Part shown: positions 17,321 to 22,653 of the stretch, piece after piece
Position numbering within the stretch: the stretch's first letter is position 1
Layout: every line of letters begins with the position of its first letter
Assembly (NCBI GenBank): GCA_018826895.1
Contig: JAHJYA010000067.1
Location: 62,001-126,000 of the forward strand
From: Gammaproteobacteria bacterium
Lineage (GTDB): Bacteria; Pseudomonadota; Gammaproteobacteria; Pseudomonadales; Pseudomonadaceae
DNA: 64,000 bases
Direction: 5' to 3'
Notes under the pieces: model-generated
What the model saw: only the letters and a program-made list of their open reading frames with translations
Database searches by the model: none
What the model was told of the DNA's origin: nothing
Position numbers and translations under genes: made by a program

Positions 17321-18319
17321 ATGCGCGAACGTACCATCGCCAGCCACTTCGTGCGCGCCGCCCTGCGCGGGGCGCAACGCCATGGCGTCGACACCGCCGC
17401 GCTGCTGCGCCAACTCGGTATCCAACCGGCCCTGCTCGACGAACCCCGCGCACGCATCGACCCCGCGCAGTTCGCCCGCTTGATGCAACAACTCTGGCAA
17501 TGCCTGGATGACGAATACCTGGGCTTTGGCCGCGTGCGCAGCGCCCGTGGCACCTTCGCCATGATGTGCCACGCGATCATCCACTGCCGCTCGCTGGACA
17601 AAGCCCTGCAACGCGGCGCGCTGTTCTACGGCCTGTTCGAGCAGGCACCGGCCATTCGTCTGGAGCGTGAAGGCGACTGGGCGCGCCTGAGCGTGGACGA
17701 CAGCGCCCTCTGGGACCCCGACCACTTTATGCTGGAGAGCCTACTGGTCATCTGGCACCGCCTGGGCAGTTGGCTGATCGGCCAGCGCATGCGCCTGGAA
17801 GAAGCCACCTTCACCCACGCCGAACCCGCCCACGCCGCAGAATACGACCTGCTCTTCCCCTGCCCCCGGCGCTTCGGTGCCGGGCGCAGCAGCCTGCTGT
17901 TCCACGCCCGCTACCTGGACATGCCGCTGCTGCAAGACGAACGCACCCTTAAACAGTTCCTCCAGCACTCCCCCGCCGACCTCCTCGCCCGCCCCGACGG
18001 CGGCGACAGCCTCAGCAGCCGCATCCGCCGCCAACTCGGCCGCGACTGCAACACCTGGCCCGACCTCGACACCGTCGCCCGCCACCTGCACATAAGCCCA
18101 CAAACCCTGCGCCGCCACCTGCGCGAAGAAGGCTCCAGCTTCCAGGAACTCAAAGACCACCTGCGCCGCGACCTGGCCATCTACCACCTGGGCCGTGATG
18201 ACCTGGCGATTCAGGACATTGCCGAGCAGCTGGGCTTCTCCGAACCCTCAGCATTCCACCGCGCCTTTAAAAAATGGACTGGGCTAACGCCGGGCGCTTA
18301 TAGGGCGCAAGAGGGCTAA
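17321..18319 (+). CDS. AraC-family transcriptional regulator (OruR/ArgR-like architecture)
   Basis: 332 aa from the ATG at 17321 (MRERTIASHFVRAAL). The N-terminal two-thirds matches the Arabinose_bd-type ligand domain with the ALLRQLGIQPALLDEPRARI start seen in this class. The C-terminal 100 residues hold two helix-turn-helix motifs: TVARHLHISPQTLRRHLREEG, and IQDIAEQLGFSEPSAFHRAFKKWTG. The ligand is unknown. Nothing in the immediate neighbourhood other than dctA suggests a target. Confidence 0.88.
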   Translation: MRERTIASHFVRAALRGAQRHGVDTAALLRQLGIQPALLDEPRARIDPAQFARLMQQLWQCLDDEYLGFGRVRSARGTFAMMCHAIIHCRSLDKALQRGALFYGLFEQAPAIRLEREGDWARLSVDDSALWDPDHFMLESLLVIWHRLGSWLIGQRMRLEEATFTHAEPAHAAEYDLLFPCPRRFGAGRSSLLFHARYLDMPLLQDERTLKQFLQHSPADLLARPDGGDSLSSRIRRQLGRDCNTWPDLDTVARHLHISPQTLRRHLREEGSSFQELKDHLRRDLAIYHLGRDDLAIQDIAEQLGFSEPSAFHRAFKKWTGLTPGAYRAQEG

Positions 18320-18717
18320 GCCCACGCACACTGCTTGCCGTTTACCGGGCAAATGCTTATGGTCAGAGCCAACTAGCCGGCCAATTGCCAGCACCTCAGA
18401 CAGCCGACACCAAAGGGAAATTGGAATGCGCTGCAGACTCGCCGAAATTACACCCTTCTCTGCCGCCATTTACACCGACTTACCGACGCCTTTGAGCGTG
18501 GCTGGCGGGGTTGGCACGACTGCGCAAAAAGCGGAAGTCGCGCAAATACGCAGTGTTGGTTTGTCGAGGATAGTAACTAGTTGATGGGAAAGTATTTTTA
18601 TAGAGGCCGCTGGGGATAGGCGGCGTTGTTATGTGGAATCCTCTCATAATGGTTTAGTGAGGAATTCGGTCTAATCACTTTTATGAGCCAAGTTTTTGCC
18701 GGAGCGCTAAAATAAAA
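18320..18717. other. Noncoding left border of the AT-rich island
   Basis: About 400 nt with no supported gene. The first 200 nt have the host's base composition. From about 18560 onward the DNA becomes AT-rich and stays so to about 20990. A sequence resembling the right half of an integron attC site (ATAGGCGGCGTTGTTATG, around 18615-18634) lies near the composition shift, but I could not pair it with a left half. Confidence 0.5.
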
Positions 18718-19701
18718 ATGACGCCAAAGAAAAAGCGACAGCGCCGAGAATACTTACGACTCCTAGATAAATCTAAGGAGGCAGCTGAATGCGCAATTGA
18801 TAATTTCAATCGTACAAAGAGCGCATTCAGCACTGAAGCTACTCTTATGTTACTTGGCGTAGCTTGGGAGTTGCTTGCAAAGGCAATTTTAGTACACACA
18901 AAAAAGACAATAAAAAAGACCAATTCAGAAGATTCAATATCTGCTGAGGTTGCCGTATCAAGGCTTCTATCTGAAAAGAAAATTGATAAGCATCATTCCG
19001 ACATAGTCCAGCAAATAATCTCACTTAGAAACGCCTCAGCTCACGATGTACTTCCTGATATTCCAATAGAAGTGCAGCATCATCTTATGTACTATGCATG
19101 CAAATTCTACAGAGAAATTATACTTGCAAATTTCAAAGGCCATGCATCTGATCTCAACCAGCACTATCTGAGCTTGTCATTCGGCAATTTAACAACTTAC
19201 GCTGACAAAGTTCACAAAGCAGTTTCACAAATCAGAAAAAAAGATTCAGCAAAGACATTGGTCTGGTTGCTCGAGAGAGGTATTACCTTCGACGGATCAA
19301 AATACCTAACTCAAAAGCAATTTGATGCAAAAATCAAAGGAAAAAGCAGGACACTGCCCTACCTAGAGCTTGGCAAGCACCTTAACGGATCAGATATGGT
19401 TCGCATCGTGCCTGTCGAAGCCCCAAAGAACTATACGGCCGACCTAGTTTTAAGAAAAGGCAACTCAAATGACCTGTCGCTTCCTGTCGTCTTGAAACGT
19501 ACGGATCTTGAGAAAGACTACCCTTACCTAACAAACGAGCTAGCTACCCTAATCGGCAAAAATACCAACTTTGTTGCGAAGGCCGTATCTGTGCTTGGGT
19601 TAAAAGGAAATGAAAGATTTCATCAAACCATTAGATCTTCTAAGTCCGGTGAAATTCAGCGCTACAGCGAGGCAGCAAAGTCTAGATTACAAAAAAATTA
19701 G
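18718..19701 (+). CDS. HEPN/DUF3644-like protein, candidate defence RNase
   Basis: 327 aa, lysine-rich, with codon use far more AT-rich than its neighbours. The N-terminal half is helical and resembles DUF3644: a WELLAKAIL helix near residues 50-58, followed by the HEPN active-site motif R-x4-H in SLRNASAHD (R104, H109). The C-terminus (YPYLTNELATLIG, then KGNERFHQTIRSS and QRYSEAA) looks like a winged helix-turn-helix. HEPN proteins of this type are commonly toxin or abortive-infection RNases. That function is inference here. A GGAG lies 13 nt before the ATG. An attC-like site follows the stop. Confidence 0.65.
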   Translation: MTPKKKRQRREYLRLLDKSKEAAECAIDNFNRTKSAFSTEATLMLLGVAWELLAKAILVHTKKTIKKTNSEDSISAEVAVSRLLSEKKIDKHHSDIVQQIISLRNASAHDVLPDIPIEVQHHLMYYACKFYREIILANFKGHASDLNQHYLSLSFGNLTTYADKVHKAVSQIRKKDSAKTLVWLLERGITFDGSKYLTQKQFDAKIKGKSRTLPYLELGKHLNGSDMVRIVPVEAPKNYTADLVLRKGNSNDLSLPVVLKRTDLEKDYPYLTNELATLIGKNTNFVAKAVSVLGLKGNERFHQTIRSSKSGEIQRYSEAAKSRLQKN

Positions 19702-19747
19702 CAGAAGACCCCAGTTTCAATCCATACAGAGAACAAAGGTAGTGGCT

Positions 19748-19822
19748 CATAACAAATGGGTAAAACTGCTCGCATCGCTCACTGGGACGAGCTAAAGCAC
19801 GCCCCTTAACCAAACGTTATAA
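19748..19822 (+). repeat. Integron attC-like recombination site
   Basis: About 75 bp between the two island genes. The outer arms are CATAAC and GTTAT, which pair. Next inside, TGGGTAA pairs imperfectly with TTAACCA. The centre has GCTCG (19768-19772) and CGAGC (19788-19792) around a 15-nt loop. The right end CGCCCCTTAACCAAACGTTATAA resembles the conserved end of attC sites in chromosomal integrons. Position just after a stop codon and before the next gene is as expected for a gene cassette. Confidence 0.65.
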
Positions 19823-19841
19823 ATCATGGAGAGGGCAGCAG

Positions 19842-20981
19842 ATGTCGTCTGAATTAACCGTATCTTTAACGAGTGAAATTTTTAAGAAGATCCTAAAAAG
19901 CTCTCTTTCCGAAAAGTTTGAGGAGGCTCTTTTCTTGTTTAGAGGAGCCGAAAAGTCACAAAAACAAAAACTTGAAGTGGTTACTACGTGGTATAGAGAG
20001 CAAAGGCTGGTAATGGTATTAGGCGCGGGCTCATCGGTTTCATATGGACTACCCAATTGGGATACATTACTCCAAAAGCTATTGCTAATAACTATAAAAT
20101 CTGATGATGAAAAAAGCGAAAATAATGGAGAAAAAGCAGGGGTCTTAGCAAGAACCTTTAATAGCATATTCGAGCCAAATTCGTTAATTTCAGCTAGATA
20201 TCTCCACAATTATTTTAAAAAGAAAAACCCAAAATCTAACCTAGCATTTGAAAATGCTATCCGAGATTCGCTATATGACGGAATAGATATAGAGGACGAC
20301 TCTGACTTACTTAAAGAAATTAGACAGTTTTGCATTGCAGCAGGAAAGAGCCCGAATTTAGATTCAATAATCACTTATAATTATGACGACTTACTTGAAC
20401 AATGCCTTCAAAAAATCGACGTCGACATCCCATTTTCATCAATTCATGCTAGGGGAATGAAACACCAGCAACATCATCTTCCTATATATCATGTTCATGG
20501 ATATTTACCTCAGAAAGGACAGTTAACCTCTAAAAACAAAGTTGTTTTAAGTGAGGATGGATACCATCAGCAGTACACTGACGCGTATGGATGGAGCAAT
20601 CTAATACAAATAAATAAGTTTAAAGATCTTAACTGCTTATTAATAGGCCTGTCTTTTTCAGATCCTAACTTGCGGCGATTACTTGATATTGCCAAGAACG
20701 AGAGAGGCGATGATGAAGTCCACCATTATTGCTTTAAAAAAAGGCATGAAAAATCAAAAATAAAATGGCAACTAGAGAAACTTCTTTCAGAGCATGAAGA
20801 TATCTTGGATGAAAAAATTGGAGCTCAACTACAGCTGGATGAAGTTGTCAGTGAGTTGATCAAGCTAATGGAGAAATTTGAAGAAAATGATGCACTGTCT
20901 TTTGGCGTTGGCATAATTTGGGTAGACAAATACGAAGAGATACCTGAATTACTCAAGCAAATCAGAGTCGGTATCAAATAA
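19842..20981 (+). CDS. SIR2-like NAD-binding protein, candidate defence NADase
   Basis: 379 aa, AT-rich. The SIR2_2-type domain spans about residues 50-300: GAGSS (61-65), TYNYDDLLE with the catalytic-type Asn180 and Asp182, HVHG with His219, and IGLSFSDPNLRRLL (268-281). Such proteins in Thoeris, DSR and SIR2-Argonaute systems deplete NAD+ on phage infection. A 50-residue helical N-terminal leader and a C-terminal helix replace the large sensor domains of known systems. A strong GGAGAGGG ribosome-binding site precedes the ATG. The partner may be the upstream HEPN gene. Confidence 0.75.
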   Translation: MSSELTVSLTSEIFKKILKSSLSEKFEEALFLFRGAEKSQKQKLEVVTTWYREQRLVMVLGAGSSVSYGLPNWDTLLQKLLLITIKSDDEKSENNGEKAGVLARTFNSIFEPNSLISARYLHNYFKKKNPKSNLAFENAIRDSLYDGIDIEDDSDLLKEIRQFCIAAGKSPNLDSIITYNYDDLLEQCLQKIDVDIPFSSIHARGMKHQQHHLPIYHVHGYLPQKGQLTSKNKVVLSEDGYHQQYTDAYGWSNLIQINKFKDLNCLLIGLSFSDPNLRRLLDIAKNERGDDEVHHYCFKKRHEKSKIKWQLEKLLSEHEDILDEKIGAQLQLDEVVSELIKLMEKFEENDALSFGVGIIWVDKYEEIPELLKQIRVGIK

Positions 20982-21270
20982 TCTATAACAATGCATTGCA
21001 GCAAGTAGCCCGGATACCCAACGCGCCCCATTAGCGGATGAGAAAAGCGTCATCCACCCTACGCGGTAGCATGCAGTTGGTGGCCTGTAGGGTGGACAAC
21101 GCGAAGCTTGTCCACCGTGATGCGTCCAGAACAGCCATCACCTATCTGGCAATACGATTCGGTATTGGCCGCGTCTACGGGTGGTTGTCGGTTGGTGGAA
21201 CTGGCTGCTCGTCGTTATCGCGTCGACTCTCTAAAAATCTCGCGGCTAAAGCCCCTCCCACACGCTGTAT
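20982..21270. repeat. Right border of the island: dispersed Pseudomonas repeats
   Basis: No gene is supported. TCTATAACAATGC right after the SIR2-gene stop resembles the left end of another attC site, apparently truncated. From 21009 come repeats of host type: CATCCACCCTACG and GTAGGGTGGACAACGCGAAG (21051-21115), an inverted pair common in Pseudomonas intergenic DNA, and a REP half-site GCGGCTAAAGCCCCTCCCAC at 21242-21261 next to the phoQ stop. Confidence 0.6.
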
Positions 21271-22653
21271 CTAGTCGTAGAGCCGAATACGAAAGCAGGC
21301 GCCGCCGAGGGGGGAGTCGTCGAGGCTGAGCTCGCCTTCGTAGCTGTCGATGATGTCTTTGACTACAGCGGTGCCGATGCCTTGGCCGGGGTGTTGGGCG
21401 TCGAGGCGGACGCCGCGTTCGAGGATGCGCGCACGTTGGTCGGGGGGGATGCCGGGACCGTCGTCTTCCACGCAGAGGTCGCACACGCCATTGCGCAGCC
21501 GGGCGCTGACTTTGACCTGGCCGAGGCACAGGCGGTAGGCGTTTTCCAACAGGTTGCCGAGCAGTTCGAGCAGCGCGCCGCGCTCCATGGGCACCAATAG
21601 TGCGATGTCGAAGTCGCGCAGCACGCGCACCTGTTTATCGCGGTAGACCTTGTCCAGTGCGCTGCACAGGGTGTCGAGCAGTGGTTCCAGGGCGACCTGA
21701 TGGCGGATCAAGCCGCTTTTACGCAGGCTGGCGCGCTGCAGTTGGTAGTCGATCTGCTGGCTCATGCGCTCGACTTGGCCTTGCAGAATCTGCGCTTGCT
21801 CACGCTGGCGGGTTTCGGCGGCGATCACGTCACCGACGCTTTGCAGCACCGACAGCGGGGTTTTCAGGCTGTGCGCCAGGTCGTCGAGCGAGTGCCGGTA
21901 GCGCTCGCGCTGGCGCCGTTCGCTGTCGAGCAGGCGGTTGAGCGAGCGGGTCAGGCGCAGCAGCTCGCGCGGGTGGTCGGCGCTCAGGCGCTCGCGGGTG
22001 CCGGATTCCACTTCATCGAGTTCGGCACTCAGCCCGCGCAGGCTGCGAAAGCCCCAGGTCAGGCCAAACCAGAGCAGCCCGAGCAACAGCAACAGGGCGC
22101 CGCCAAGCCACAGGTAGAGCTGGTTCATAAAACCGTTATAGAGAGCCTGATAGTCGCGGTTGGGCTGCATGGTGACCACGCTGAAGGCCGCGGCCTGGCC
22201 GCGCAGCAGGTCGATCTCCACGTCATAGACGAAGAACACCTCGCCGCGCCCATCGTCCATGCGCACGAACTCGTGGCCACGGCCGTCGTAGCGCGGCCGA
22301 TAGTGGATGCTTTCGTCTTCGGAGGAGCGCGAGCGCCAGACCAGGTTGCCATCGCGATCGTAGATAAAGCCCAGCAGCTTGGCGTCCAGGGAGTCGAATT
22401 CCTCGTCGGGCAGTTGCTCGGGCATGCGCAGCTGGCCGCCTTCACTGCGCGCGGCGGACACCAGCGAGGCGGCGTCGGCAGCCAGGCGTTTTTCGATGGA
22501 CTGCTCCATGGCGATAACGAAGGCGCCGCGCAACGCCGGCAACAGCGCCAGCATAAACAGCACGGCGAGCACCGTGGCACCCAGCATCAGGCGCAGGCGC
22601 AGGGAGAAACGCCGCTGCCAGGGCGAGGGAATCGGCAGAGGGTGTTGCATCAC
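21271..22653 (-). CDS. phoQ: Sensor histidine kinase PhoQ
   Basis: 460-aa membrane sensor for low Mg2+ and cationic peptides, partner of PhoP. TM1 is near residues 23-46, followed by a periplasmic sensor of about 130 residues and TM2 near 180-203 (LWLGGALLLLLGLLWFGL). Then come a HAMP-like linker, the H-box DDLAHSLKTPLSVLQS with phospho-accepting His, and the ATP-binding motifs NLLENAYR, VEDDGPGIP and GQGIGTAVVKDI. It overlaps phoP by 4 nt. The acidic loop DGRGEVFFVYDVEIDL is in keeping with a metal-binding sensor. Confidence 0.92.
   Translation of the reverse strand: MMQHPLPIPSPWQRRFSLRLRLMLGATVLAVLFMLALLPALRGAFVIAMEQSIEKRLAADAASLVSAARSEGGQLRMPEQLPDEEFDSLDAKLLGFIYDRDGNLVWRSRSSEDESIHYRPRYDGRGHEFVRMDDGRGEVFFVYDVEIDLLRGQAAAFSVVTMQPNRDYQALYNGFMNQLYLWLGGALLLLLGLLWFGLTWGFRSLRGLSAELDEVESGTRERLSADHPRELLRLTRSLNRLLDSERRQRERYRHSLDDLAHSLKTPLSVLQSVGDVIAAETRQREQAQILQGQVERMSQQIDYQLQRASLRKSGLIRHQVALEPLLDTLCSALDKVYRDKQVRVLRDFDIALLVPMERGALLELLGNLLENAYRLCLGQVKVSARLRNGVCDLCVEDDGPGIPPDQRARILERGVRLDAQHPGQGIGTAVVKDIIDSYEGELSLDDSPLGGACFRIRLYD

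What the first reader, a model, noticed from the sequence alone, without database searches (positions are those of the whole stretch)
19748..19822. attC-like site between the two island genes: cassette-borne defence genes outside an obvious integron
The 75-bp intergenic segment has paired outer arms (ATAAC/GTTAT), a second imperfect pair, a central GCTCG/CGAGC stem, and the CCCCTTAAC...CGTTAT right end typical of chromosomal-integron attC sites. No integrase gene is in the window. Sedentary integrons are now known to store anti-phage cassettes; here cassette(s) seem to have landed at a secondary chromosomal site. If so, the two genes are separate cassettes and their pairing could be by chance.
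Basis: partly seen in the sequence, partly recalled or inferred. Interest (0 to 1): 0.75.

Follow-up and report, generated by a model that had tools for sequence, protein, structure and literature searches.

The report
Gene cassette at an orphan integron dock
A bacterial gene cassette that probably carries a virus-defence gene sits in a stray copy of an integron's docking site that has no integrase gene beside it, and many such stray docks, used again and again with different cassettes, turn up across Pseudomonas, Aeromonas and Halomonas genomes.

Summary
The 75-bp segment is a real attC site: 80-90% identical to dozens of array attCs in related Pseudomonas, and the only attC-model hit in the window. 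Directly left of gene 1 lies a conserved element (18524-18680) ending in an attI-type crossover. The cassette's first bases (TTATGAGCCA) complement the attC's left arm (TGGCTCATAA) exactly, which fixes cassette 1 at 18681-19816. The same element is the genuine attI beside an intact or nearly intact intI in about 11 related Pseudomonas genomes, but most copies have no intI: 52 of 68 fetched copies are orphans, and 41 of these have a cassette at the crossover. At five chromosomal positions shared between species, the flank is conserved up to the crossover G and the next 300 bp are unrelated. In nine closed genomes, 8 of 11 attC clusters without intI start at such an element. So many integrase-less arrays appear to be built on dispersed attI docks served in trans. 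Gene 2 has only a truncated attC. The window's own dock is degenerate (G to T at the crossover) and no intI was found in its 88%-complete genome. Recombination was not tested.

The parts
18332..18523 (+). Leader of the orphan platform, with a promoter-like box (TTGCCG-16-TTATGG); shared with a second platform in the same genome (G000:C112)
   Evidence: 71.6% identity over 18332-18690 to G000:C112. Similar leading box in several other orphan copies. The simple sigma-70 scan found no promoter.
18524..18684 (+). attI-homologous element (box GGAAGTCGCGCAAATACGC, inverted repeat, L and R boxes of the crossover site)
   Evidence: Model R1 146 bits, E=1.6e-42 (the window copy was one of the 7 training sequences). 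Intact or partial intI lies divergently beside homologous copies in other genomes.
18626..18676 (+). Inverted repeat of the attI core (GTTATGTGGAA...TTCGGTCTAATC)
   Evidence: Across 68 copies 85% of cells paired; 70 double-change cells against 43.7 in shuffles, 0 of 500 shuffles as high. Imperfect in the window copy.
18680..18681 (+). Crossover junction attI|cassette 1; the conserved G is a T here (CACTT|TTATGAGCC)
   Evidence: Alignment of copies.
18681..19816 (+). Gene cassette 1 (gene 1 plus attC)
   Evidence: TTATGAGCCA at 18681 is the exact reverse complement of the attC left arm TGGCTCATAA at 19743-19752, followed by C.
18718..19701 (+). Gene 1, 327 aa: DUF3644 (PF12358), matches PADLOC candidate defence family PDC-S19
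   Evidence: Pfam E=7e-18; PADLOC E=2e-21.
19743..19826 (+). attC of cassette 1 (core 19750-19819)
19817..21004 (+). Second cassette, truncated: begins at the crossover, carries gene 2, keeps only the left part of its attC (20980-21004, AATCTATAACAATGCATTGCAGCAA)
   Evidence: 8 of 10 bases of AATCTATAAC match the expected arm GATTTATAAC (by eye); no attC model hit there.
19842..20981 (+). Gene 2, 379 aa: SIR2_2 domain, ThsA/SIR2-like candidate anti-phage NADase
   Evidence: Pfam E=2e-19; PADLOC ThsA E=1e-20.
21005..21270 (.). Host repeat DNA between the truncated array and phoQ
   Evidence: Short stretches recur elsewhere in the genus.

Best explanation
The attC belongs to a cassette carrying gene 1 that an integron integrase inserted at a dedicated attI site which exists here without an integrase gene. 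This orphan attI is one of several dispersed copies in the genome. Such copies descend from complete integron platforms (the intI-attI intergenic region); intI was lost or left behind while attI stayed usable. One integrase elsewhere in the cell, or one passing through, inserts and exchanges cassettes at all docks in trans. Shown: homology to intI-linked attI, exact cassette boundaries, multiple orphans per genome, and different first cassettes at shared positions. Inferred: action in trans, platform decay as the origin, expression from a leader promoter, and the anti-phage function of the genes. The window's dock looks crippled (G to T), so its cassette is probably fixed.
For: Boundary complementarity in the window. 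Boundary test over 68 copies: 36 positive against a mean of 3.7 (max 6) with shuffled junctions. Intact or nearly intact intI lies about 70 bp from the start of the conserved element (about 200 bp from the crossover) in 12 copies from 11 genomes, with remnants in 4 more. 41 of 52 orphans have a detectable cassette at the crossover. Five positions shared across species (24 loci): conserved upstream flank, 23-29% downstream identity. [quoted passage not shown] Same motif in GTDB genomes of Aeromonas, Halomonas, Marinobacter and others, with intI beside most Halomonas copies and almost never beside Aeromonas copies. Orphans cluster by locus and intI-linked copies are not one clade.
Against: No integrase of this clade was found in the window's genome, which is a draft, 88% complete. 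None of the five genomes compared at shared position Y (nor G416 at the same position) has the cognate intI now, so the in-trans source there must have been lost or transient, or another IntI did it. The window site has T instead of G at the crossover. 11 of 52 orphans show no detectable cassette by the tests used (one of these, C112, has one by eye). No recombination was measured. At position Z two attI sequence types occur, so that group is not simply one inherited attI.
Confidence: 0.78

Rival explanations
1. A cassette landed at an arbitrary secondary chromosomal site (attG type).
For: No intI nearby; araC-phoQ is normally a short intergenic gap in relatives; attG insertion is a known reaction (own knowledge; mentioned in PMC12444791).
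Against: The left flank is a 157-bp conserved element homologous to intI-linked attI, present many times with the crossover at the same base.
Confidence: 0.06
2. Dead integron: a complete integron sat here, its intI was deleted after the cassettes had arrived, and the remaining array is a fossil with no use in trans.
For: intI remnants at several orphans; the usual view of CALINs as degraded integrons (PMC9024848); window crossover G to T; no intI in the genome held.
Against: At five positions no member has intI and the upstream context is shared, so loss looks ancestral, yet every species carries a different cassette at the crossover.
Confidence: 0.14
3. The element is a mobile unit (MITE-like) that carries attI around the genome, rather than a leftover of integrons.
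For: Several copies per genome at unrelated loci; two related copies sharing about 350 bp in the window's genome; homology of many orphans ends within 155-250 bp.
Against: No common sharp left end, no terminal repeats or target duplications were identified; orphans cluster by locus across species.
Confidence: 0.1

Closest known systems
Sedentary chromosomal integrons of Pseudomonas (intI + attI + attC array)
   Same: attC type, attI element, G|TT crossover, divergent intI with LexA box beside the linked copies
   Different: Here attI and cassettes occur with no intI, at several loci per genome
CALIN (cluster of attC sites lacking an integron-integrase; IntegronFinder, PMC9024848)
   Same: Cassettes without neighbouring intI
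   Different: CALINs are defined by attC alone and proposed to be degraded integrons; here most begin at a recognisable attI with cassette exchange. Strictly, the window has one full attC, below the two-attC threshold.
CALINs at conserved chromosomal loci in Xanthomonas (PMC12444791)
   Same: Integrase-less arrays at positions conserved across species
   Different: No attI-based cause was found in the passages read; not tested here
attG secondary sites
   Same: Cassettes outside the integron
   Different: attG sites are not conserved homologues of attI; this element is
Class 4-like integron of Aeromonas sp. 3925 (PMC10609294)
   Same: Aeromonas chromosomal integron with intI, attI and cassettes
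   Different: Its attI sequence was not compared here; the Aeromonas copies found here are nearly all without intI

Membership tests
attC site | Paired R''/R' arms with AAC...GTT | tested here: met
   TAAC 19750-19753, GTTA 19816-19819
attC site | Homology to attC in intI-linked arrays | tested here: met
   80-90% identity, arrays beside intI
attC site | Cassette start complementary to the left arm | tested here: met
   10 of 10 bases
attC site | Stable single-strand fold of the bottom strand | tested here: inconclusive
   z=-0.54
attC site | Recombined by an IntI | not testable with these tools
   Needs an assay
attI site | Homology to attI adjacent to intI | tested here: met
   R1 element beside intact or nearly intact intI in 12 copies
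attI site | G|TT crossover followed by a cassette | tested here: inconclusive
   Cassette starts exactly at the crossover, but the window has T|TT instead of G|TT
attI site | intI next to it | tested here: not met
   None in the window; hence called an orphan attI homologue
CALIN | At least two attC sites and no intI | tested here: not met
   One full attC plus a truncated one
attG secondary site | Site unrelated to attI or attC | tested here: not met
   Element homologous to attI
PDC-S19 candidate defence family (gene 1) | Profile match | tested here: met
   E=2e-21, best stretch residues 10-140 only
SIR2/ThsA-like defence effectors (gene 2) | SIR2-like domain | tested here: met
   PF13289 E=2e-19
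SIR2/ThsA-like defence effectors (gene 2) | Anti-phage activity | not testable with these tools
   Needs phage challenge

The most novel reading that the evidence does not exclude
In several genera (Pseudomonas, Aeromonas, Halomonas and others) the integron is a distributed system: one integrase, resident or transient, serves a set of dispersed attI docks kept at fixed chromosomal positions across species. Many integrase-less cassette arrays (CALINs) would then be live docks rather than fossils.
Probability: 0.6. Interest if true: 0.85.

Novelty: new variant of a known kind. Interest (0 to 1): 0.72.

Why it matters
About half of integron-like loci reported with IntegronFinder are CALINs, generally described as decayed integrons, and attI sites outside class 1 are poorly described (PMC9024848). 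A recognisable attI at the head of most such arrays in closed Pseudomonas genomes gives a concrete, testable origin for them, explains why some sit at conserved positions, and means the cassette-accessible part of a chromosome is larger than the intI locus. It also places candidate defence genes in a system that can swap them without disturbing neighbouring genes.

Tried and rejected
Rfam gave nothing relevant. Thermodynamic folding did not separate the attC from shuffles. A sigma-70 scan found no promoter in the platform. The first boundary test (9 bases) missed short arms; a 7-base test plus the attC model was used for the final tally. Gene 1 gave one weak plasmid hit only. The attG paper of 2024 is not in the library, so attG is cited from own knowledge and from passages in other papers. 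'attG only', 'dead integron only' and 'MITE' are kept as rivals.

Full report
THE OBSERVATION. The segment 19748-19822 has the arms and right end described. BLAST against 57 related genomes returned 19750-19819 at 80-90% identity in many places of same-genus genomes, in head-to-tail arrays, for example G014:C1:137.6-144.8 kb and G001:C2:368.4-373.7 kb, each next to an integron integrase. A covariance model of 33 such sites finds one attC in the 64-kb window (84 bits, E=8e-21; the window's copy is in the training set) and nothing else of note in 18300-21300 with filters off. Folding alone does not distinguish it from shuffles. It is a genuine attC, with some mismatches in its stems.

THE LEFT BOUNDARY. 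Window 18332-18690 is 72% identical to a second place in the same genome (G000:C112), where another cassette-like gene followed by a different attC starts at the same point. The shared element ends in GTTA-inverted repeat-TCTAATCACTG|TTA. In the window the bases after the junction, TTATGAGCCA, are the exact reverse complement of the left arm of the attC at 19743. That fixes cassette 1 as 18681-19816, containing gene 1 and its attC.

THE ELEMENT IS AN attI. Model R1 was built from seven copies. In 400 Pseudomonas genomes it hits 50, with roughly 70 strong full-length hits and up to several per genome. Among 68 copies fetched with flanks, 12 (11 genomes) have an intact or nearly intact integron integrase transcribed away from the element; two of these genes are interrupted or frameshifted (G086, one of two in G198). 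The integrase starts about 70 bp from the start of the conserved element and about 200 bp from the crossover; four more copies have intI fragments. A LexA-type box (CTGT-N8-ACAG) sits about 186 bp from the crossover in most intI-linked copies and is missing from most orphans.

MOST COPIES ARE ORPHANS AND ARE OCCUPIED. 52 of 68 copies have no trace of intI; 41 of these have a detectable cassette directly at the crossover. The boundary test (nine bases, one mismatch allowed, then C and a right arm) is met by 36 of 68 copies against a mean of 3.7 and a maximum of 6 with shuffled junctions. [quoted passage not shown] Single attC sites are different: only 3 of 13 have the element within 4 kb, so other routes, such as attG insertion or decay, are likely for those.

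CASSETTE EXCHANGE AT INTEGRASE-LESS DOCKS. Five chromosomal positions are shared by 3 to 8 species each (24 loci). Upstream flanks align up to the crossover (position Y: 96% at -500..-350 and 80-94% closer in), but the first 300 bp downstream have 23-29% global identity, the level of unrelated sequence, and each species has a different cassette start. No member of these groups has intI at the position, so intI loss there appears ancestral and the exchange later. Caveats: in the genomes of position Y no cognate intI exists anywhere now, and position Z holds two attI sequence types. A tree of the elements groups orphans by locus (Y support 0.97, W 1.0) and does not unite the intI-linked copies, which points to several independent losses of intI.

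BEYOND PSEUDOMONAS. The 19-base motif TTCCRTCTAATCACTGTTA, expected about four times by chance in the collection (own estimate), gave 84 stretches, chiefly Pseudomonas, Aeromonas (up to five in one genome) and Halomonas, plus Marinobacter, Stutzerimonas, Trabulsiella and Enterobacter. Somewhat under half are followed within 3 kb by a matching attC arm. An integrase of the same clade lies beside 19 Pseudomonas and 5 Halomonas copies but only as a 67-aa fragment beside one of 32 Aeromonas copies (20 of them with at least 1.4 kb of upstream sequence and no intI). The integrase is about 58% identical in Halomonas.

THE INVERTED REPEAT. Across the 68 copies 85% of cells are paired, with 70 double changes against 43.7 in shuffles (0 of 500 as high) and at most 53 in slid controls. 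The alignment was fitted to the structure, so this leans in its favour. It may be a hairpin or an inverted pair of integrase-binding boxes; the data do not decide.

THE RIGHT SIDE AND THE LOCUS. Cassette 2 starts properly at 19817 and carries gene 2, but only the left arm of its attC remains before host repeat DNA. In nine relatives the araC homologue and phoQ are about 40-250 bp apart, so the platform plus cassettes is an insertion of about 2.7 kb.

THE GENES. Gene 1 is a DUF3644 protein matching the PADLOC candidate family PDC-S19; gene 2 is a SIR2-like protein closest to ThsA profiles. Neither function was tested. No gene 1 homologue was found in 299 other Pseudomonas genomes; three have distant gene 2 homologues (34-37%) without gene 1. 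Their adjacency therefore looks like array order rather than a conserved two-gene system.

VERDICT. The window's dock has T for G at the crossover and is probably no longer efficient. In the papers searched I found no description of dispersed orphan attI sites; most subscription journals are not held, so priority is not established.

Noticed in passing
L129:3404-4522; L021:6546-7613: Insertion sequences whose transposase looks like IS110/IS1111 (by sequence, not scanned) sit inside or next to attC sites at several cassette arrays; the same end sequence (TATATGGA..CCCCACAAGTAGTGAGCAATAGC) interrupts attCs in L057, L113, L129, L133 and L139.
   Followed up: partly
L023:122, L021:6490, L027:10666, L018:1098: A repeated sequence GGCGCGGGGAGAGTCCATTACAGCATTCAA replaces the left half of attC in arrays of two genomes (G000, G001); probably the end of a mobile element inserted in attC. 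An IS3-like transposase lies just upstream in L027.
   Followed up: partly
G000: C6:49.7-51.4 kb, C62:0.1-1.8 kb, C122:81.7-82.5 kb, C14:0.8 kb, C33:13.2 kb, C79:42.1 kb: The window's genome has further cassette clusters; only the one at C79 is near one of the four R1 attI elements. What heads the others was not determined.
   Followed up: no
L025, L027, L029, L030 (between intI and the first attC): Another Pseudomonas integrase lineage has an attI of similar layout but different sequence (GTTATGCGACA-inverted repeat-GTCTACTTATAG|TTAGG).
   Followed up: no
L141:2600-3650: The intI-linked attI of Pseudomonas sp. 8Z is interrupted by an IS5-like insertion, while orphan attI copies elsewhere in that genome are intact and occupied.
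   Followed up: partly
L237 (Aeromonas australiensis, 4.4 kb contig): Two attI elements in the same orientation 2.5 kb apart, each followed by its own cassette.
   Followed up: no
window 18332-18370; L051:3161; L053:3297; L054:3051; L167: A promoter-like leader box CTTGCCGTTTACCGGGCAA...CTTATGGTC occurs upstream of some orphan attI copies and also at two loci without a strong attI match.
   Followed up: no
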